Origin: a virus
Virus record (IMG/VR): IMGVR_UViG_3300048547_000202
Location: 1 to 32,598 of that record
Reading direction: 5' to 3' (one strand)
DNA length: 32,598 nucleotides
Position numbers and translations under genes: made by a program. Shown here in pieces: positions 110 to 29,075 of this stretch. The notes under the pieces are model-generated. The model worked only from the letters and a program-made list of their open reading frames with translations. It did no database searches and was not told where the DNA came from. The first letter of the stretch is position 1. Every line of letters begins with the position of its first letter.

Positions 110-736
110 ATGAATTATACAGAGCTAAAAGCCAACATCCAAAATTTTCTAGAAGACGATTCAACTGAGTTCGTCGCCTCAATCGACACAATAATATCGC
201 AAGCTGAAGAGATGGTATTTCAGCGACTGCCAAATATGCCTTGTTTCCGACAGACATCGTCTGCTGCAAATTTGGTTATTGGCCAGAGCCAATACACAAT
301 TCCCACAGCAAGAATGATCCGGCAGGTGTCCATAACAGACACTAATGTCTTGACGTATCTCGACCACAGAGTTGATTCTTACATCAGAGACTATTGGCCC
401 AATGCCACGACGCAAGGCACCCCACGAATGTACAGCACAAATAGCGCAGGAACAGCTGGAACGATCATTACATTGGCACCAACCCCATCAACAGCGTTGG
501 CCTATAGCGTAGATTTTATTGCCCCTGAGACGGGGTTAAGCAATGCGAATCCAAATACTTGGATTGCAACAAATGCATCAACAGTTCTACTTTCTGCGGC
601 TCTGTTTGAGGCATCGGCGTTTTTGAAAGCGCCAGAGACTCTTTCTCTCTATAAAAGTCAACTTGACGAAGCAGTCCAGTTCACAGTACAAGAGATGCAA
701 AGGAACTATACAGCAGAATATAATGGAGGCATATAA
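110..736 (+). CDS. head-tail adaptor-like protein
   Basis: A 208-aa protein. Its N-terminus is a helix pair (MNYTELKANIQNFLEDD, then an amphipathic stretch with AEEMVFQRLP around residues 33-42), followed by a beta-rich middle and a helical C-terminus. This layout, and the phrase AEExxxxRLP, resembles the adaptor (connector) proteins that sit below the portal in podovirus-like phages, such as the SU10-type adaptor. The start has a good ribosome-binding site (GAGGA, 7 nt before ATG). The stop overlaps the next start by one base (TAATG), so translation is probably coupled. The family call comes from sequence pattern only; another neck component is possible. Confidence 0.6.
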   Translation: MNYTELKANIQNFLEDDSTEFVASIDTIISQAEEMVFQRLPNMPCFRQTSSAANLVIGQSQYTIPTARMIRQVSITDTNVLTYLDHRVDSYIRDYWPNATTQGTPRMYSTNSAGTAGTIITLAPTPSTALAYSVDFIAPETGLSNANPNTWIATNASTVLLSAALFEASAFLKAPETLSLYKSQLDEAVQFTVQEMQRNYTAEYNGGI

Positions 737-21150: not shown

Positions 21151-23964
21151 TTACAACATCTTACGAACCTTTTCAAGATAGATCTTCCTGAACCCATTCT
21201 TCAACACACCTTTGAATAAGTACCATTCACCCAGCTTTCCATCCTCCACAATGGGCTTGCCCATCTTTTGGTACTTGAACCTGTCGACTGTGCATATGAT
21301 TGCGCCAGTGTCATCTTCAGCTGTCACGTTCAACCAAAGGTTATTCCGATCAACTCTGCGACCACCACGTTTGGCCAAGTTGACAGCTTCATTCATATCC
21401 CTCAAATTCTTCTCTTTGAGCTTGCCGAAGAAAACGAATGTTCCTGGATTGTCCCCGTCTAGGTCTTGGATGTCTGTTATGGCTGAGCCGATGTTGTGGG
21501 CTTTGGGATCTTTCTTGATGTGGCCAAATCTCCTTTCGCACTCAAAAATATCGTCATAGGGTGTCGTGCCTGTGTTCAGCAGGGTTTCTTGCCGTGGGGT
21601 CAATGGTTGGGACAGGTTGCGCCTGTTTTCTATGTCTTCTGCCATTTTGGGGCCGATGCCTTTGATCCCTATCAACCCACCGATCAATTCATTGTCTTGG
21701 ACTGACCAGTTGGCCTTGGACTTGAATTTGTCGAATGGCTTGTAAGTCAATCCCTCAGACACAACTTCCCTCAACAGCTTGACAGCTTGGTCGTCATCCT
21801 TGACATTACGGAGGCAAGCAGCAGCATACTCCAGTGGGAACCTGCTCTTCAAGACACAACACCAATAGCTCACCATCCCGTAAGATATTGCGTGACTGCG
21901 GTTGAACGCCCAAGATCCCATCGTGTTGATGTTGTCCCATATTGTTTGCGCGACGTCTTCCGGTATGCCGTTCTCAGCAGCTCCAACCTTGAACTTCTCC
22001 CAGAACGTGTCAAAATATTCTTTGCCATAAGACTTGCTCATTGCTTTGCGCAGGAATGAAACATCTTCCCAACTCAGCTTGCCTATCTCCCGACCAATGG
22101 TCATGACTTGTTCTTGATAGACCACAACACCATGAGTCACCTTTGTGATTGGCTCTGTCATTGGGTGCATGTATTCCGCTGGTGCTGCTCCTATGTGCCG
22201 CTTGATAAACTGGCTCGTACCACCGGAGTTGAGTGGTCCAGGACGAGCTAGGGCAGTGATGGCTGCAACGTCCTCAAAGTTGTGCACTTTCATTTGTCTG
22301 GTCACACCTTGCAGCGCGTAGCCTTCAAATTGGAATATGCCTGCATATTTCTCATCATTCAATATTGCGAATGCCTTTTTGTCTTCCAGAGGAAACTTTA
22401 TCAGCTGGTCTCGCACCCAACCAACCTGATCCAAAACGTCCTGCAAGACGGAGAGTGTTCTGAGGCCCAATGCATCAATCTTCAGCAGGTTGAGGTCTTC
22501 AGCGTCTTTTTTGTCTATCTGGGCCGCACCAGTCTGCGCACTGACGGAGCAATATTTGCTGACTGGGTCTTCAGTCACCAGAATGCCAGCAGCATGCACA
22601 CCAACGTGTCTTGCGTGGTTCTCCATCTTTGCCGCAACTTTCATCTGCGGGAATTTCTCCAAGACAGCCTTGCCTATGTCGAGGTCGTTGAATGTGTCGA
22701 GGATGCAGAACGCAGCACGAGAGTCACCACCACTGCGCTCGATGATCGCACCTTTCAGGTCATTGACTTCCCATGCGGGTATGCCAAGCTCTTTGGCCAC
22801 TTCTGCTATTGTGCTCTTGGCTTTGTAGCGGCTGACCGTCCCGAGGTGTGCAACTTTTTCTGCACCGTACTTGTCCCTGAGATATTGGAAAACCATCTCT
22901 CTGCGGTCATCTTGAAAGTCGATGTCGATGTCTGGCAGATCTTCTCGGGTGATGTCGATGAATCTTTCGAACAACAGGTCGTGCACAATCGGGTCAACGT
23001 CAGTTATGCCAGTGAGGTAACAAACCAAAGAACCAGCAGAAGATCCACGAGCAGGGCCAACCAGCATGTGCTCTTTGGCGTAACGAATCATGTCAGCAAT
23101 CACAAAGAAATAATCCTCAAATTCCTTGCTGGCAATCATGTCCAACTCTCGCTTGAGCCTAGCCGCATAAACTGGATCTTTCAGGTCAACGCCCAGTGCC
23201 GGAGCACCATCTTCGCAAAGCTCTCGCAAAGTCTTTTTTGAATGGAATGCGATCATTTGCGCAACTGGCAGATCAGCATTGCAAAGCTCTGCAACTTTGT
23301 AGGTGTTGTCGATGGCTTCTTGCGTCCCCCAAGGCACAGCAGCCTTCCACTCCCACTCATCAAGAATGTGCATGGGCCCACTGCGATCTGTACGGTTACG
23401 GCCACACAAAACCTCGTAAGCCTTTTTGTCCGATGGCTTGGGATAAAAGTTGTCGCTGGTGGCTATGGTCTTGAAGCCTTTTTGAGCAGCCCACTCAGCT
23501 GACTTCGGAGAGCTCATTGGTCCAAGCTCGACGTAAAGATTGTGTTTTTTGGTCAAAGGAAGCATCGACCAGTCTGGGTGCGATCCGGACAACATTATCA
23601 CGTTTTCGCTGACATCGAACAGGTCTGAATAGCTTATGCGGGGATAATAGTAGAAATTCTCTTTGGATGTGCTGCGGGACACAAGCTCATATATCTCAGC
23701 CAACCCATCATTGTTGCAAGCCAGAAATGACATCGGATTGTCGGCTTGTTTGGAACGGTCATTGGCATCTAAGACCACAGATATCTCAACACCAAACACA
23801 GGCTTGATGCCAGACTTTTTGCAGTGCTTGGAGAATGCGACGTGGCCCCATGTTCCTGTGTCGCATATTCCAACAGCCTTGTCTTCAAAACACTCAACAA
23901 CCTTTTGTATGGGGCCGTATGCCTTGCGGAACGAATACTCTGTGCGTGTCTTGAGGTTCAACAT
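21151..23964 (-). CDS. dnaE: DNA polymerase III alpha subunit (C-family polymerase)
   Basis: A 937-aa polymerase, shorter than the roughly 1160 aa of bacterial DnaE. The catalytic palm has GPARGSSAGSLV (303-314) and PDIDIDF (344-350, with D345 and D347 as metal ligands). LLKIDALGL carries the third aspartate. FNRSHAISYGMVSYWC is the conserved fingers motif. The PHP domain at residues 1-60 is degenerate: the usual LHxHSxYS reads LKTRTEYS, and D-H reads D-T, so metal-dependent proofreading is probably lost. The C-terminus ends in an OB-like segment, without a clear beta-clamp/tau tail. It directly follows the epsilon-like gene (TAA-ATG), giving a phage-coded replicative core. Confidence 0.92.
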   Translation of the reverse strand: MLNLKTRTEYSFRKAYGPIQKVVECFEDKAVGICDTGTWGHVAFSKHCKKSGIKPVFGVEISVVLDANDRSKQADNPMSFLACNNDGLAEIYELVSRSTSKENFYYYPRISYSDLFDVSENVIMLSGSHPDWSMLPLTKKHNLYVELGPMSSPKSAEWAAQKGFKTIATSDNFYPKPSDKKAYEVLCGRNRTDRSGPMHILDEWEWKAAVPWGTQEAIDNTYKVAELCNADLPVAQMIAFHSKKTLRELCEDGAPALGVDLKDPVYAARLKRELDMIASKEFEDYFFVIADMIRYAKEHMLVGPARGSSAGSLVCYLTGITDVDPIVHDLLFERFIDITREDLPDIDIDFQDDRREMVFQYLRDKYGAEKVAHLGTVSRYKAKSTIAEVAKELGIPAWEVNDLKGAIIERSGGDSRAAFCILDTFNDLDIGKAVLEKFPQMKVAAKMENHARHVGVHAAGILVTEDPVSKYCSVSAQTGAAQIDKKDAEDLNLLKIDALGLRTLSVLQDVLDQVGWVRDQLIKFPLEDKKAFAILNDEKYAGIFQFEGYALQGVTRQMKVHNFEDVAAITALARPGPLNSGGTSQFIKRHIGAAPAEYMHPMTEPITKVTHGVVVYQEQVMTIGREIGKLSWEDVSFLRKAMSKSYGKEYFDTFWEKFKVGAAENGIPEDVAQTIWDNINTMGSWAFNRSHAISYGMVSYWCCVLKSRFPLEYAAACLRNVKDDDQAVKLLREVVSEGLTYKPFDKFKSKANWSVQDNELIGGLIGIKGIGPKMAEDIENRRNLSQPLTPRQETLLNTGTTPYDDIFECERRFGHIKKDPKAHNIGSAITDIQDLDGDNPGTFVFFGKLKEKNLRDMNEAVNLAKRGGRRVDRNNLWLNVTAEDDTGAIICTVDRFKYQKMGKPIVEDGKLGEWYLFKGVLKNGFRKIYLEKVRKML

Positions 23965-24501
23965 TTATATGTGTCCTTCCTTTGCGTACCAATCAATGAT
24001 CCGGAGCGTTGCTTCAACATCATTCATTGACCTGTGAGAGCCTTCTATCTTCTCTTCGAAGAGCTCTTCGTATATGTCGCCCAGCTTGCGCATCTTCCCC
24101 CAGACTCTCTGGCCAACCTCAACTGTGCAGGTGTGCTCATAAGGCCAAGGGAAGCTTGTGACCTTGTCTAGCCTCTCAAGCTCAAATTTCAAGATCTTTC
24201 TGTCGAAGCCAAGATTGTGGGCAAACATACGCTTGGTTCCCAAAAAGAATTCATTCAATCTGTCGAGGTGTGCGATGAATGGCTTTTGGTCTTTGAGCAT
24301 GTCGTCTGTTATGCCTGTGATCTTGGTGATCTTTGGATCGAGCATGTGCTTGGGGTTGCAAAAGAATTCAAGGCGATCAACCTCAATGAGCTCTTCAGTA
24401 AGCTTGATCGCACCGAATTCAATAATCTTGGGCTGCATGTCAAGATCAGAACCTTCCGCTTTGGGCAGACCTGTGGTTTCTAGATCAAAGACTATCAGCA
24501 T
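23965..24501 (-). CDS. dnaQ: DnaQ-like 3'-5' exonuclease (proofreading)
   Basis: A 178-aa DEDDh exonuclease. Motif I is FDLETTG (D6, E8), motif II AHNLGFDRKIL (D100), and motif III SHRSMNDVEAT (H156, D161). This is the complete DEDDh set. The gene ends immediately before the dnaE start, so the two proteins are very likely made together as a polymerase-proofreader pair; this would replace the lost PHP activity. It overlaps the VOC gene by 17 nt. The clamp-binding QLxLP-type motif of cellular epsilon is not evident. Confidence 0.9.
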   Translation of the reverse strand: MLIVFDLETTGLPKAEGSDLDMQPKIIEFGAIKLTEELIEVDRLEFFCNPKHMLDPKITKITGITDDMLKDQKPFIAHLDRLNEFFLGTKRMFAHNLGFDRKILKFELERLDKVTSFPWPYEHTCTVEVGQRVWGKMRKLGDIYEELFEEKIEGSHRSMNDVEATLRIIDWYAKEGHI

Positions 24502-24965: not shown

Positions 24966-25643
24966 TCAGGCTCCATATGGAAGGATGCACCCAGTCAGGT
25001 ACTTGTGGTGATCTTTTGATTGAAGTAAAAAAGCGACAAATTCTGCCAGCCTTTCTGGTGGCGTTTCTTCGCCTGTCAACAGACCATTGAGTTGATACTG
25101 CTGGGCATGCTCTTTGGTCCAGCCACGAGTGGCAACCACTTGGTTGTCGATGTCATCACTCATGCCAGTGCCAGAGAGTTTGTTAGGGGCTATCCCAAAA
25201 ACTGTTATGCCATGCTTCTTGGTCAGCTCTCTGGCCATCTGCAACGTCATGATGTGGGCAGCACCTTTGGACGCATTGTAGGCCAAAGAACAAGTCATAG
25301 GCATGTGGGCTGCATTGCTTACGATGTTGATGACTGTGCCTTTGCTTTTGATCAGTCCTGGCAAGCAAGCCTTGGTCATCATGTAGATGCCTTTGGCGTT
25401 GGTGTCCATGACTTTGTCCCAGTCTGATTCCTCGAAGTTTTCCAGCCAATCGATTATGTTGACGCCAGCATTGTTTATCAACACGTCAATTTTCTGACGC
25501 CAGACGTCAGAAATGTCTGGACTGCGGACATCCCTGCCATCCTCAAGATTGAAGCTGATCACTTTGTGGCCTTGGCTGATCAGCTTTTCTTTCATTGCCT
25601 TGCCCAAGCCTTTGCCTGTGCCTGTGATTAAAATGTTGCTCAC
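24966..25643 (-). CDS. short-chain dehydrogenase/reductase (SDR)
   Basis: A 225-aa oxidoreductase. The start is GTG at 25643, overlapping the previous TGA and with a strong AAGGAGG 7 nt upstream. The NAD(P)-binding loop is TGTGKGLG (7-14), the structural motif NNAG (57-60), and the catalytic set N82, S109, Y122 and K126 (YNASK). All classical SDR residues are present, so it should be an active dehydrogenase. The substrate cannot be read from the sequence; nucleotide sugars, fatty-acid intermediates or modified bases are possible. It is followed by the VOC gene. Confidence 0.85.
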   Translation of the reverse strand: MSNILITGTGKGLGKAMKEKLISQGHKVISFNLEDGRDVRSPDISDVWRQKIDVLINNAGVNIIDWLENFEESDWDKVMDTNAKGIYMMTKACLPGLIKSKGTVINIVSNAAHMPMTCSLAYNASKGAAHIMTLQMARELTKKHGITVFGIAPNKLSGTGMSDDIDNQVVATRGWTKEHAQQYQLNGLLTGEETPPERLAEFVAFLLQSKDHHKYLTGCILPYGA

Positions 25644-25936
25644 TGTTTCTCCTCCTTGATGAGATATTCAACCATGGCCGCATAAACGGCTGCATCATGA
25701 ATTGAGTCTTTGTGTTTCAGGTTGCTGTTTGCGAACCTAGTGATCTTGACGATCATCAACTCAAACAGATGCCAGCTGTTGTAATCGCTGACTGTGTTGA
25801 GCTGCACCCCATTGGGGAACAAACTGATCATCACTTCTCCGACGGTCTTGTAGTTGTCGCCGTAGACTTTATTCCGCTCTCGGAATGTTTCTGCCATCTC
25901 TTGCAGAATGTCTGATGGATCTTTAGGACTGCTCAT
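25640..25936 (-). CDS. small NTPase-like protein (DUF6378-like)
   Basis: A 98-aa helical protein, start ATG at 25936 overlapping the upstream stop (ATGA). The sequence ERNKVYGDNYKTVGEVMISLF followed by FELMIVKITRFANSN and SIHDAAVYAAMVEYLI has the order R-x-x-x-YG, then K-x-x-R, then D-x-x-x-Y found in a small phage family (DUF6378) that resembles all-alpha NTP pyrophosphatases. Hydrolysis of a (d)NTP would fit the nearby ThyX and polymerase. It ends in GTGA overlapping the SDR start. The family call is by eye. Confidence 0.6.
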   Translation of the reverse strand: MSSPKDPSDILQEMAETFRERNKVYGDNYKTVGEVMISLFPNGVQLNTVSDYNSWHLFELMIVKITRFANSNLKHKDSIHDAAVYAAMVEYLIKEEKQ

Positions 25937-26121
25937 TCGACACGCCACCATTCACCTTCGGCCCTCCCTTCTTGGTATGCTGCATCGACGGATTCGTCGT
26001 GCTCGTTGGACTTCTTGAAAGCCTCCTCCAGAGACATCCGCAGGGCAGGGCTGAGGTCAAAAAGCCTTGCAATTTTTTGCCTGTCAAATTCAATGTCGTT
26101 GCCGACCAATCTAAGTTCCAT
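25933..26121 (-). CDS. small hypothetical protein (62 aa)
   Basis: A 62-aa acidic helical protein. The ATG at 26121 overlaps the phosphatase stop (TGATG) and has GGAGGGG 8 nt upstream; an upstream start would read out of frame through the phosphatase gene. It begins MELRLVGNDIEFDRQKIARL and ends EGEWWRVE. No cysteine or known motif. It is coupled at both ends, so it is likely real. Confidence 0.6.
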   Translation of the reverse strand: MELRLVGNDIEFDRQKIARLFDLSPALRMSLEEAFKKSNEHDESVDAAYQEGRAEGEWWRVE

Positions 26122-26555
26122 CAGAAATTCCCCTCCTGAACCTGCAGGCAAGTTATGCCCTCATCTCTCCACATGTCAACGCAGACTTTGCGGTCTTCCA
26201 GAGCAAACCAGACTTGTTCTTTTTTGTAGTTGGCATTGAACAATTCTCGCTTGACAATGTCGTCTCTGCGCTTGTCACCTGCTGGCCTCATCAACAGATG
26301 GTTGAATGGGATGTCATTCATGTTGAGCCAACTCATGGTCACGTCTCTGAATGATTCGTCCCGAGCGGTCATTATTACAATCCAAGTCCACTTAGGCAGA
26401 TTGCGCACCAAATCAACAACAGCATCAATCGGATCATCATCCTTGCTGGCTGCATTGAATGCTTCATAATCTTTCGCTTCATACAAATGGAATCTGTGAC
26501 GACAATCAGCCAGCGTCCCATCAATGTCAACAATCACTGCACCGTCTCGAACCAT
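26121..26555 (-). CDS. HAD-superfamily phosphatase (PNK 3'-phosphatase-like)
   Basis: A 144-aa protein. The ATG at 26555 has AAGGAGG 7 nt upstream; a TTG eight codons earlier is unlikely. Motif I is VDIDGTLAD (D10 nucleophile, D12), motif II is MTAR (T63), the region RRDDIVK carries a candidate motif III lysine (K102), and motif IV is EDR (D121). The phrase ALEDRKVCVDMWRDEGITCLQV is very like the phosphatase domain of T4 polynucleotide kinase. No kinase domain is attached. It may remove 3'-phosphates from nicked nucleic acid or act on nucleotides. It overlaps the upstream gene by 22 nt. Confidence 0.8.
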   Translation of the reverse strand: MVRDGAVIVDIDGTLADCRHRFHLYEAKDYEAFNAASKDDDPIDAVVDLVRNLPKWTWIVIMTARDESFRDVTMSWLNMNDIPFNHLLMRPAGDKRRDDIVKRELFNANYKKEQVWFALEDRKVCVDMWRDEGITCLQVQEGNF

Positions 26556-27022
26556 TCTGGAGCCTCCTTGTCTTTCCAAGCTGCGAACCTTGCCTTGGCA
26601 CCATTGTAATAATTCCTGTATGCTTCCACAGTGCAGTCAGTTTTGTATTCATCAGGCATGCACTGAGGCGGTTCTCGCCAAGCCAGACGATCAATCCACA
26701 TTGGTGAAATTGTCAAGAATGGAGCCAGACCCATGCTCTTGTGGGTCTTGCCGTATCGTCTTGTGTATTCCAAACCAAGCTGGACATACAATCCGCAAGC
26801 CCACCAATATTGCGCAGAGCTCTCGCGCACCCAAACAGCAGACGGATGGTTCTTGTGGGTAGACTTATACAAGCCAACCATGTCAGCCCAGTAGTCACCA
26901 TCGAGCTCTCTGTGAGCAGTGCACAGCAGCTGCGCAGTCTCAAGGATCATTTTGACGCAATGCTTGTCGCAATGCATCTTTGCAGCTTCCACAGGGTTGT
27001 GGTCTAGGTAGAAAATATTCAT
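26534..27022 (-). CDS. conserved phage protein of unknown function
   Basis: A 162-aa protein starting at ATG 27022 after TGAGAAAGGAA. It begins MNIFYLDHNPVEAAKMHCDKH and continues VKMILETAQLLCTAHR, then AVWVRESSAQYWWACGLYVQL and EYTRRYGKTHKS, ending APEWF. This is a distinctive family common in tailed phages. Its His/Cys/Arg pattern (CDKHxVKM, H-x-x-HPS, WVRES) suggests an active site, and a distant relation to pyrimidine-dimer glycosylases has been proposed for such sequences; I cannot confirm this. It lies between an HTH-like protein and the HAD phosphatase. Confidence 0.65.
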   Translation of the reverse strand: MNIFYLDHNPVEAAKMHCDKHCVKMILETAQLLCTAHRELDGDYWADMVGLYKSTHKNHPSAVWVRESSAQYWWACGLYVQLGLEYTRRYGKTHKSMGLAPFLTISPMWIDRLAWREPPQCMPDEYKTDCTVEAYRNYYNGAKARFAAWKDKEAPEWFETVQ

Positions 27023-27047
27023 GCCATTTCCTTTCTCAGCACGATCC

Positions 27048-27323
27048 TTACTTTTCGAATAATCCTTTAAATGCTTTCCTGAAGCCATTGACTATTGACC
27101 GTTCGTCTTTTTGGAAGTCTTCAGGCTCCTCAAACGCAGCATCATCAACAACGTAGTCCACAGGTATTGGTTTGTCCTCCAGCAACGTGCAATGAGGATT
27201 ATAAAGGATGTACTTGACTTCATGCTCCTTCAGGCTGTGCTTCTCCATGATCTCTTTGACGGTCATGTGCTTCTTGTTTTCCCGCACAGCGATTATCAGA
27301 TCATCTTCATATTTCTTGCTCAT
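27048..27323 (-). CDS. small helix-turn-helix-like protein
   Basis: A 91-aa protein with ATG at 27323 overlapping the ThyX stop (ATGA). Residues 5-40 contain DDLIIAVRENKKHMTVKEI and MEKHSLKEHEVKYIL, a helix-turn-helix pattern of the simple trihelical type. The rest is acidic (DDAAFEEPEDFQKDE) and ends FKGLFEK. It may regulate the operon or act on DNA with its neighbours. A 24-nt gap follows before the next gene, which has its own leader. Confidence 0.55.
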   Translation of the reverse strand: MSKKYEDDLIIAVRENKKHMTVKEIMEKHSLKEHEVKYILYNPHCTLLEDKPIPVDYVVDDAAFEEPEDFQKDERSIVNGFRKAFKGLFEK

Positions 27324-27967
27324 GGCTTGTTCAGAGCCTTTCCCATTGATGGTGCGGCCCACTGTGTTGGGGTCAAGAAAGGATCAGCCCATGGGTGCAC
27401 CGCGACAACAGCCTTGACCATCAGCTTGAACACCTGTTGATATTCACCTTGAGCTCGTGGGCTGAGGCGTGACTTGGCCATCTCGCTCAGTGTGCGCAAG
27501 TTAAACTTCGCGACGATGTTGGTGTGGATGTTAGTCGGCAAGACACCACGTGCATCTTCTGCGGGGACAAACTTCCGGAGCCTTTGGTATGCGTCAGCTA
27601 TGTCAGCCATTGCCTTGTCATATTCTTCCAGAGCTTCGTGGTTTTGCTCAATGCGCTCTGGAGTGTAATAGCTGAAGCCAAACATGTCAACTGTTCGTTG
27701 AGATTGTTGGGCGTATGAGGCTTGGCGAGTCCGGACGAACTGATGGGTGAACCCACGACTGACATCTCGAATGTTGAATGTGTAGTCAATGAATTCCCAA
27801 GATGAGCGGATTGTTTGGAGCATGTAGTCTAGCTCCTCCTGCTTCTTTGTTTCAGACCATCCAGCGATTTTGCCATAGGCATCCTCGTCGTCCATCAGCC
27901 TTGTGTTCTTGGTGAACAACAGCAGGTCAACAGCGTCAGAGGTATAATTTACGAGTTCCACTTTCAT
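27320..27967 (-). CDS. thyX: ThyX-like flavin-dependent thymidylate synthase, variant motif
   Basis: A 215-aa protein, start ATG 27967 with AAGGAG 7 nt upstream, overlapping the FAD oxidoreductase stop (ATGA). The signature region reads HQFVRTRQASYAQQSQR: RTRQAS (79-84) in place of the classical RHRxxS, and SYAQQSQR in place of SxNExSxR. RGVLPTNIHTNIVAKFNLRTL and SPRAQGEYQ are also typical. ThyX makes dTMP from dUMP with FAD, NADPH and methylene-folate. The His-to-Thr change occurs in a subclass of phage homologues by my recollection; whether it makes dTMP or modifies another nucleotide is open. Confidence 0.85.
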   Translation of the reverse strand: MKVELVNYTSDAVDLLLFTKNTRLMDDEDAYGKIAGWSETKKQEELDYMLQTIRSSWEFIDYTFNIRDVSRGFTHQFVRTRQASYAQQSQRTVDMFGFSYYTPERIEQNHEALEEYDKAMADIADAYQRLRKFVPAEDARGVLPTNIHTNIVAKFNLRTLSEMAKSRLSPRAQGEYQQVFKLMVKAVVAVHPWADPFLTPTQWAAPSMGKALNKP

Positions 27968-28902
27968 TGATTTTCTCCTTTCTGAGAGTGCATCCATCGG
28001 GCATAGTCAGACTTCCCCCGAATGAATTCTTCGACAACTTTTACATCGTCGACTACATCGTCCAGTAAGATCTGTCGCCATGTTGCGAACCTGCCAACTG
28101 AATAGATGTTGTGTTGGGTGGTCATTTGGAAAATGAATTCTTTCCGCAGACGCTCATCGATCGGACGAATCTTGCCGTACTCTTGAGTCGATGAGGTGAT
28201 GTTGGTTATCTTCATAGGTCTGAACCCGAAGTCATCCATCAGTATGCTCATTATGTGGGGTGCTGGCTTTGATTCTATTGGCACAGCAGCCTCACAGATC
28301 ACGACATTGCCGATGACTGAAACTCTGTAATGTGGGACTGTCGGGTCTGGGTAATAAATGGTCTGATATATATCGCAGTCCGGTTTGTCAATGGTTGCGC
28401 GGATGGTGTATATTTTTTGCTTGGGAAAGTCTGGGATCTCGTCCCAACCGACGATCTTCATCAACACTGGCATTGGTATGGTCGAGATGATTGGTCCGGA
28501 AGTGTTGGCGATTGAGTATTCGGACAAGCTCATGTTGTAAGATATTTCTGCGCCCATGGACATGTCCCTGATCAGGTGCCATGGGGCAATGTAGCGTGAT
28601 GCTGCGGAGAGGTTGTTGATGGATCGGCTCATGATTGAGCCTGTGACCTTTTGGGAATACATGTTGCTCAGGAACAGGTTTGGCTCAGTGGTGATCTTGC
28701 CGTCGTACTTGATTGCTTTGGTCACGTGCACCTTCTTGAAAGGGATGCCGCAAGCTGTGCCAGCCTTGTCGCTACGGAAGCGCAACAGCGCACCATGGTT
28801 GTTGGGCAGGGAGCCTTGAGCCTCAAACACAGTTGGGCTCATCCCCCTCAACATATTAGCTGCCAGCAATCCTGCCAGACCTGCTCCATAAATCGCTACC
28901 AT
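27964..28902 (-). CDS. FAD-dependent oxidoreductase
   Basis: A 312-aa flavoprotein. The N-terminus has a beta-alpha-beta dinucleotide fold: VAIYGAGLAGLLAANML (GAGLAG 6-11) with E27 at the end of strand 2 binding the FAD ribose. The C-terminal VGRFATWRQILLDDVVDD is like the second FAD-binding motif (G-R-F-x-W) of UDP-galactopyranose mutase and amine oxidase-like flavoproteins. No second NAD(P) site is obvious. The start overlaps the CxxC gene (TAATG), with GGAGGAA before it, and the stop overlaps thyX. This tight pairing suggests work with ThyX or on its product. Confidence 0.8.
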   Translation of the reverse strand: MVAIYGAGLAGLLAANMLRGMSPTVFEAQGSLPNNHGALLRFRSDKAGTACGIPFKKVHVTKAIKYDGKITTEPNLFLSNMYSQKVTGSIMSRSINNLSAASRYIAPWHLIRDMSMGAEISYNMSLSEYSIANTSGPIISTIPMPVLMKIVGWDEIPDFPKQKIYTIRATIDKPDCDIYQTIYYPDPTVPHYRVSVIGNVVICEAAVPIESKPAPHIMSILMDDFGFRPMKITNITSSTQEYGKIRPIDERLRKEFIFQMTTQHNIYSVGRFATWRQILLDDVVDDVKVVEEFIRGKSDYARWMHSQKGENQ

Positions 28903-29075
28903 TATTCCTCCAACATCTTCCTGAGTTTGCGTTCGGCTCTCTTGGCCGCTGCATGGGTTGTTATTGCTTGTGGCACGGATTGCTCAATCGGGAATATACA
29001 AGCATCAAGCGCAACGAGCAAGAGGCGAATCTCCTGCTCGTTGAGTTTTGGCTTATAGCAATCTTTGCAGGTCAT
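28902..29075 (-). CDS. 57-aa CxxC protein
   Basis: A short frame found in the gap: ATG at 29075-29073 overlaps the stop of the upstream gene (ATGA), and the TAA at 28904-28902 overlaps the FAD oxidoreductase ATG. The protein starts MTCKDCYKPKLNEQEIRLLL, with one CxxC pair (C3, C6) and a further C26, then a basic helix (HAAAKRAERKLRKMLEE). A half zinc-ribbon or redox-active CxxC is possible. Both boundaries are coupled, so it is probably real and part of the FAD-ThyX group. Confidence 0.65.
   Translation of the reverse strand: MTCKDCYKPKLNEQEIRLLLVALDACIFPIEQSVPQAITTHAAAKRAERKLRKMLEE

What the first reader, a model, noticed from the sequence alone, without database searches (positions are those of the whole stretch)
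27320..29075. FAD oxidoreductase coupled to a divergent ThyX
A CxxC peptide, an FAD oxidoreductase and a ThyX homologue are joined by TAATG and ATGA overlaps. The ThyX has RTRQAS instead of RHRxxS and lacks the SxNE pattern. Classical ThyX reduces its own flavin with NADPH and needs no partner flavoprotein. The pair could be a two-component thymidylate synthase or a route to a modified pyrimidine in phage DNA.
Basis: partly seen in the sequence, partly recalled or inferred. Interest (0 to 1): 0.65.

Follow-up and report, generated by a model that had tools for sequence, protein, structure and literature searches.

The report
Flavoprotein–ThyX pair in phage replication operons
Many phages, including Pseudomonas phages used in therapy, carry an odd version of the DNA-building enzyme ThyX that is tied to a second, uncharacterised flavin protein; the pair probably makes an altered DNA building block, which would be a new route to the modified DNA with which phages evade bacterial defences.

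Summary
The genes are as described, on the minus strand: CxxC peptide, flavoprotein, ThyX homologue, with TAATG and ATGA overlaps. The flavoprotein–ThyX coupling is real and deep: ThyX is present in 51 of 52 flavoprotein lineages with full context, usually followed by an HAD phosphatase, a MazG-like protein, DnaQ and Pol III alpha. The CxxC peptide is local.

The diagnostic change is not the one named: 'SxNE' is absent from ordinary phage ThyX too. What matters is joint loss of T. maritima His53, His59, His79 (of RHR) and Tyr91 equivalents, with dUMP contacts kept, across 74 sequences. None of 92 RHR-type phage ThyX loci has the flavoprotein; 33 of 33 RQR/RTR actinophage loci have a distant homologue.

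The flavoprotein is predicted to have the UDP-galactopyranose mutase/amine-oxidase fold.

Best explanation: a two-flavoprotein module making a C5-modified deoxyuridine nucleotide. [quoted passage not shown] I found no base analysis. A two-component thymidylate synthase making ordinary dTMP remains the main rival.

The parts
27964..28902 (-). FAD-type flavoprotein (phrog_4828), UDP-galactopyranose-mutase/amine-oxidase fold predicted over the whole length
27320..27967 (-). ThyX-like protein, RTR in place of RHR; His53, His59, His79 and Tyr91 equivalents lost, dUMP-site arginines kept
28902..29075 (-). CxxC peptide (57 aa); local to the window's lineage, not part of the conserved module
26121..26579 (-). 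HAD/PNKP-type phosphatase (DIDGT motif); in 47 of 52 full-context lineages
25640..25951 (-). MazG-like / DUF6378 protein (Pfam match below cut-off, E 7e-5); in 48 of 52 lineages, fused to the HAD in some phages
24966..25643 (-). short-chain dehydrogenase (FabG-like); in 23 of 52 lineages
23965..24501 (-). DnaQ-like exonuclease; in 51 of 52 lineages
21151..23964 (-). Pol III alpha-type DNA polymerase; in 51 of 52 lineages

Best explanation
The two genes are the core of a phage module that makes a C5-modified deoxyuridine nucleotide for the phage's own polymerase. The ThyX-like enzyme still binds dUMP and FAD and carries a one-carbon unit on flavin N5 to uracil C5, but with the His/Tyr face of the active site replaced it does not finish as an ordinary NADPH-driven reductive methylation; it hands over a 5-CH2-type product (for example 5-hydroxymethyl-dUMP). 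The UDP-galactopyranose-mutase-like flavoprotein acts on that product or completes its redox or adduct step. The MazG-like and HAD enzymes trim competing normal nucleotides, and the adjacent Pol III alpha incorporates the product. Optional short-chain dehydrogenase, methyltransferase or carbamoyltransferase genes decorate it further in some lineages. SHOWN: operon, co-conservation, residue replacements, predicted folds, no bacterial copies found. INFERRED: substrate, product, order of steps, roles of the neighbours, incorporation into DNA.
For: Pair kept together in 51 of 52 full-context lineages, with HAD, MazG-like, DnaQ and Pol III alpha. His-less ThyX and flavoprotein co-occur without exception in the sets tested: 33/33 actinophage loci with, 0/92 RHR loci without, 17 whole genomes split cleanly. 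Joint loss of His53/His59/His79/Tyr91 with dUMP-site arginines kept; Tyr91 and Ser88 assist methylene transfer in T. maritima ThyX (PMC8316439). Flavoprotein fold of an enzyme family that forms flavin-N5 adducts and binds a uridine nucleotide, with many invariant basic residues. Wifcevirus phages carrying the module resist nearly all tested restriction systems without known cause (PMC11990801); Pbunavirus DNA resists 7-10 of 16 restriction enzymes (PMC11945000) although most sites exist in the relative E217. A methyltransferase sits in the operon in eight lineages and a carbamoyltransferase next to the one flavoprotein without ThyX.
Against: No nucleoside analysis. Pbunavirus DNA is cut by HindIII, MspI, HpaII and SacII, and HindIII/EcoRI/XbaI maps were used in one study. 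No nucleotide kinase conserved in the module was identified and only one of 22 genomes has a dUTPase. Resistance to restriction has other possible causes (anti-restriction proteins, missing sites). The ThyX passes NCBI's equivalog cut-off for thymidylate synthase. Nothing shows that the flavoprotein acts on a nucleotide.
Confidence: 0.48

Rival explanations
1. Two-component thymidylate synthase: the product is ordinary dTMP. The ThyX lost its NADPH/folate-facing residues because the second flavoprotein supplies electrons or the one-carbon unit; the module boosts dTMP supply for phage replication.
For: Same gene pairing and residue losses; each of 22 module genomes has exactly one Thy1 protein and none has ThyA; above NCBI's thyX equivalog cut-off; position next to the polymerase also suits dTMP supply.
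Against: The predicted fold is not that of a typical flavin reductase; the partner is not always adjacent (up to about 9 kb in actinophages); restriction resistance, inserted methyltransferases and the ThyX-less carbamoyltransferase locus L289 are left unexplained.
Confidence: 0.32
2. The flavoprotein acts on something else (for example a nucleotide sugar, as its fold relatives do) and is linked to ThyX only by shared regulation within a conserved replication block; the ThyX is an ordinary if divergent thymidylate synthase.
For: UDP-galactopyranose mutase is the nearest solved fold; the whole block including polymerase is conserved, so linkage alone is weak.
Against: Residue loss in ThyX tracks presence of the flavoprotein family, also in actinophages where the two genes lie kilobases apart; no glycosyltransferase recurs in the module.
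Confidence: 0.1
3. The ThyX-like protein is catalytically dead for C5 chemistry and serves as a nucleotide-binding scaffold or regulator of the pool, with the flavoprotein as the only enzyme.
For: Loss of His53, His79 and Tyr91 equivalents; Ser88 replaced by Thr or Ala in part of the family.
Against: Arg78, Arg80, Arg90, Arg147 and Arg174 equivalents are kept in all 74 sequences and the Asn-x-Arg flavin-site motif in nearly all.
Confidence: 0.07

Closest known systems
Flavin-dependent thymidylate synthase ThyX (T. maritima TM0449, M. tuberculosis ThyX)
   Same: Thy1 family, same predicted fold, dUMP-contacting arginines and Asn-x-Arg motif kept
   Different: RHR is RTR/RQR/RSR; His53, His59 and Tyr91 equivalents lost; always with a second flavoprotein
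UDP-galactopyranose mutase (and protoporphyrinogen/monoamine oxidases)
   Same: Whole-length fold match of the model, Z 21.8 over 298 residues; similar C-terminal GR..x(Y/W) motif
   Different: About 10-18% identity, no Pfam/NCBIfam match above cut-off, UGM helical domain reduced; phage only in the collections searched
5-hydroxymethyldeoxyuridine and thymidine-hypermodification pathways (SPO1, M6 types; from own knowledge)
   Same: Works-like analogy: thymidylate-synthase homologue plus nucleotide-pool enzymes next to the replication genes
   Different: Those use a ThyA-type hydroxymethylase; no ThyA homologue in 22 module-bearing genomes; no modified base demonstrated here
MnmE/MnmG and TrmFO (tRNA uridine C5 modification with flavin and folate; own knowledge)
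   Same: Works-like analogy: a flavin-bound one-carbon unit is moved to uridine C5
   Different: Substrate is tRNA; homology to the window proteins was not tested

Membership tests
ThyX (flavin-dependent thymidylate synthase) | Match to Thy1 (PF02511) and NCBIfam thyX (TIGR02170) above curated cut-offs | tested here: met
   137.1 bits vs 24.8; 101.4 vs 87.9
ThyX (flavin-dependent thymidylate synthase) | ThyX fold | tested here: met
   Model pLDDT 93; top PDB matches are T. maritima and M. tuberculosis ThyX
ThyX (flavin-dependent thymidylate synthase) | RHR signature | tested here: not met
   RTR here; Thr/Ser/Asn in 74 of 74 relatives, Gln/Ser/Thr in actinophages. Filed therefore as a His-less ThyX-like subfamily
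ThyX (flavin-dependent thymidylate synthase) | His53 and Tyr91 equivalents | tested here: not met
   Ile 71/74; Val/Thr/Ala/Ile 74/74
ThyX (flavin-dependent thymidylate synthase) | dUMP-contacting Arg78, Arg90, Arg174 equivalents | tested here: met
   74/74 each
ThyX (flavin-dependent thymidylate synthase) | dTMP formation / rescue of a thyA mutant | not testable with these tools
   needs the bench
UDP-galactopyranose mutase | UGM fold | tested here: met
   Z 21.8, 298 residues aligned, but related oxidases score 17-20
UDP-galactopyranose mutase | Match to a UGM sequence family above cut-off | tested here: not met
   only sub-threshold N-terminal Rossmann matches
UDP-galactopyranose mutase | UGM active-site motifs | tested here: inconclusive
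   hhalign against six UGMs: probability 43%, E 2.4e-4, uncertain middle part
Known phage thymidine hypermodification pathway | ThyA-type dUMP hydroxymethylase | tested here: not met
   PF00303 in 0 of 22 module genomes; control rang in 9 of 14
Known phage thymidine hypermodification pathway | Modified thymidine in virion DNA | not testable with these tools
   only restriction phenotypes in the literature

The most novel reading that the evidence does not exclude
A ThyX-derived, two-flavoprotein pathway that makes a new C5-modified deoxyuridine for DNA in hundreds of phages, including the therapeutic Pbunavirus group and Wifcevirus, and that explains their unexplained restriction resistance.
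Probability: 0.38. Interest if true: 0.87.

Novelty: new variant of a known kind. Interest (0 to 1): 0.62.

Why it matters
If right, it would be, as far as I know, the first DNA-base (or dNTP) modification route built on ThyX rather than ThyA, found in phages widely used in therapy, and a concrete candidate for the restriction resistance reported for Wifcevirus without known cause. Even if the product is plain dTMP, a ThyX that has lost its key residues and is always accompanied by a second flavoprotein would test directly which half-reactions of ThyX can be outsourced. Either way phrog_4828 and phrog_8720, now 'unknown function', get a testable partner.

Tried and rejected
SxNE as a diagnostic: rejected, RHR-type phage ThyX lack it too. 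CxxC peptide as part of the system: rejected, adjacent in three clusters only. Bacterial copies: two conserved patterns of the flavoprotein gave no relative in the collection of 84,980 species genomes. UGM by single-sequence profile: only the N-terminus aligned; six UGMs gave a weak full-length match. Palindrome avoidance by A/T content as an indirect test of base modification: uninformative across different hosts. Anti-phage defence models: nothing meaningful; one weak partial hit of the short-chain dehydrogenase. An alignment of eight divergent RHR ThyX was too diverse for a scan; narrower queries were used. Literature on ThyX plus hypermodification, or on Pbunavirus nucleosides: nothing relevant in the open-licence library.

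Full report
WHAT IS THERE. The window is a 32.6-kb IMG/VR virus record. On the minus strand a CxxC peptide (29075-28902), a flavoprotein (28902-27964) and a ThyX homologue (start 27967, end 27320) are joined by TAATG and ATGA overlaps. Further downstream in the same direction lie an HAD/PNKP-type phosphatase, a MazG-like protein, a short-chain dehydrogenase, a DnaQ-like exonuclease and a Pol III alpha-type polymerase.

CONSERVATION. tblastn finds the flavoprotein in 359 deposited phages (Pbunavirus, Wifcevirus, Carpasinavirus, Serratia, Rhizobium, Vibrio phages and others) and related ThyX in 536. In 127 fetched loci both lie on the same strand, 120 of them directly adjacent. Scans of IMG/VR with three alignments gave, with the earlier loci, 87 flavoprotein clusters at 70% identity. 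In the 52 with at least 5 kb on each side, ThyX is present in 51, HAD in 47, MazG-like in 48, DnaQ in 51, Pol in 51, short-chain dehydrogenase in 23 (gene orders). The exception, L289, keeps flavoprotein and HAD with a 4-base overlap, lacks ThyX within its 12 kb, and carries a NodU-type carbamoyltransferase and a methyltransferase. No flavoprotein relative was found in the bacterial genome collection.

THE THYX IS A DISTINCT SUBFAMILY. Over 74 aligned members, residues equivalent to T. maritima His53, His59, His79 (the H of RHR) and Tyr91 are replaced by Ile (71), Phe (73), Thr/Ser/Asn (74) and Val/Thr/Ala/Ile (74), whereas Arg78, Arg80, Arg90, Arg147, Arg174 and the Asn-x-Arg motif are kept. 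In T. [quoted passage not shown] some RHR phage ThyX carry Phe there, so Tyr91 alone is not decisive. That His53 stacks on the folate is from my own knowledge. 'SxNE' is not diagnostic.

ASSOCIATION TEST. Actinophages with RQR/RSR/RTR ThyX carry another 'oxidoreductase' (phrog_8720; 120 phage records), which in Hiddenleaf overlaps ThyX by 4 bases. Profile comparison relates it to the window family (92%, E 7e-7, 232 columns including the C-terminal GR-x-W motif). Among 17 phage genomes plus the window in the alignment, all 8 lacking both flavoproteins have RHR ThyX and all 9 having one have His-less ThyX. In IMG/VR, 33 of 33 actinophage His-less ThyX loci with full flanks have the phrog_8720 protein within about 10 kb; none of 92 RHR loci, 61 of them with full flanks, has either family, nor do 14 whole records. 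In the ThyX tree the His-less sequences fall on one side of one branch (SH-aLRT 87, quick search): one old transition, kept ever since. This is evidence for a lasting partnership, not for repeated independent gain.

STRUCTURES. The flavoprotein model (pLDDT 94, 73-sequence alignment) matches UDP-galactopyranose mutase over its whole length (Z 21.8, 298 residues; protoporphyrinogen oxidase 19.6, monoamine oxidase 17.9). Invariant or nearly invariant His/Arg/Lys/Tyr residues (H36, R41, R43, K62, Y82, K85, R103, Y183, R193, K244, R253, R271) suggest a phosphorylated substrate (inference). UGM, like ThyX, makes covalent flavin-N5 adducts, as PMC8316439 also notes. The ThyX model (pLDDT 93) matches solved ThyX.

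PHENOTYPES. [quoted passage not shown] Bas98 carries the module. Two Pbunavirus DNAs resist 10 and 7 of 16 enzymes but are cut by MspI, HpaII and HindIII (PMC11945000); JG024 is cut by SacII (PMC3008698). In 59 kb of the Pbunavirus E217 genome only SmaI and XhoI sites are absent and BamHI and KpnI sites single, while EcoRI (29) and EcoRV (30) sites are frequent; so missing sites may not explain ten resistances, but the enzymes concerned are in a figure I could not read and another strain was counted. A further Pbunavirus study used HindIII, EcoRI and XbaI maps, which speaks against wholesale blockage. No ThyA-type enzyme was found in 22 module-bearing genomes, a dUTPase in one, and exactly one Thy1 protein in each.

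TAILORING GENES. A phrog_6636 methyltransferase sits in the operon in eight lineages at different positions: between flavoprotein and ThyX in L122, between HAD and MazG-like in L287, after MazG-like or nearer the polymerase in others. With the carbamoyltransferase of L289 this looks like optional decoration of a product (inference).

VERDICT. Observation confirmed; interpretation partly supported. Best explanation (0.48): a ThyX-derived two-flavoprotein module making a C5-modified deoxyuridine nucleotide. Main rival (0.32): a two-component thymidylate synthase with dTMP as product. Nucleoside LC-MS of E217 or Bas98 virions decides.

Noticed in passing
L289:5664-9806: The one flavoprotein locus without a detected ThyX has the HAD gene overlapping the flavoprotein, followed by DnaQ, a NodU/TobZ-type carbamoyltransferase and a methyltransferase.
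   Followed up: partly
L122:7489-8004; L287:11198-11731; L277:11134-11643: A small phrog_6636 SAM-dependent methyltransferase is inserted at different places in the flavoprotein-ThyX operon in eight lineages.
   Followed up: partly
L510 and L006 (Pbunavirus E217): EcoRI and EcoRV sites are 2.6-2.7 times more frequent than expected from base composition, whereas SmaI, XhoI, SacII, BamHI and KpnI sites are almost absent.
   Followed up: partly
window 26534-27088 (-): phrog_624 'DNA binding protein' between ThyX and the HAD phosphatase, with a sub-threshold match to pyrimidine-dimer glycosylase (Pyr_excise, E 0.039); in 9 of 52 lineages.
   Followed up: no
window 110-736 (+): SU10-type adaptor protein at the head of the plus-strand virion genes, suggesting a podovirus-like virion for this contig.
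   Followed up: no
L317:4083-4709, L317:4726-5235: Krampusvirus actinophages place a protein distantly sharing phrog_1485 with the window's MazG-like protein, and an annotated nucleotide pyrophosphohydrolase, between ThyX and DnaE, mirroring the window's operon.
   Followed up: partly
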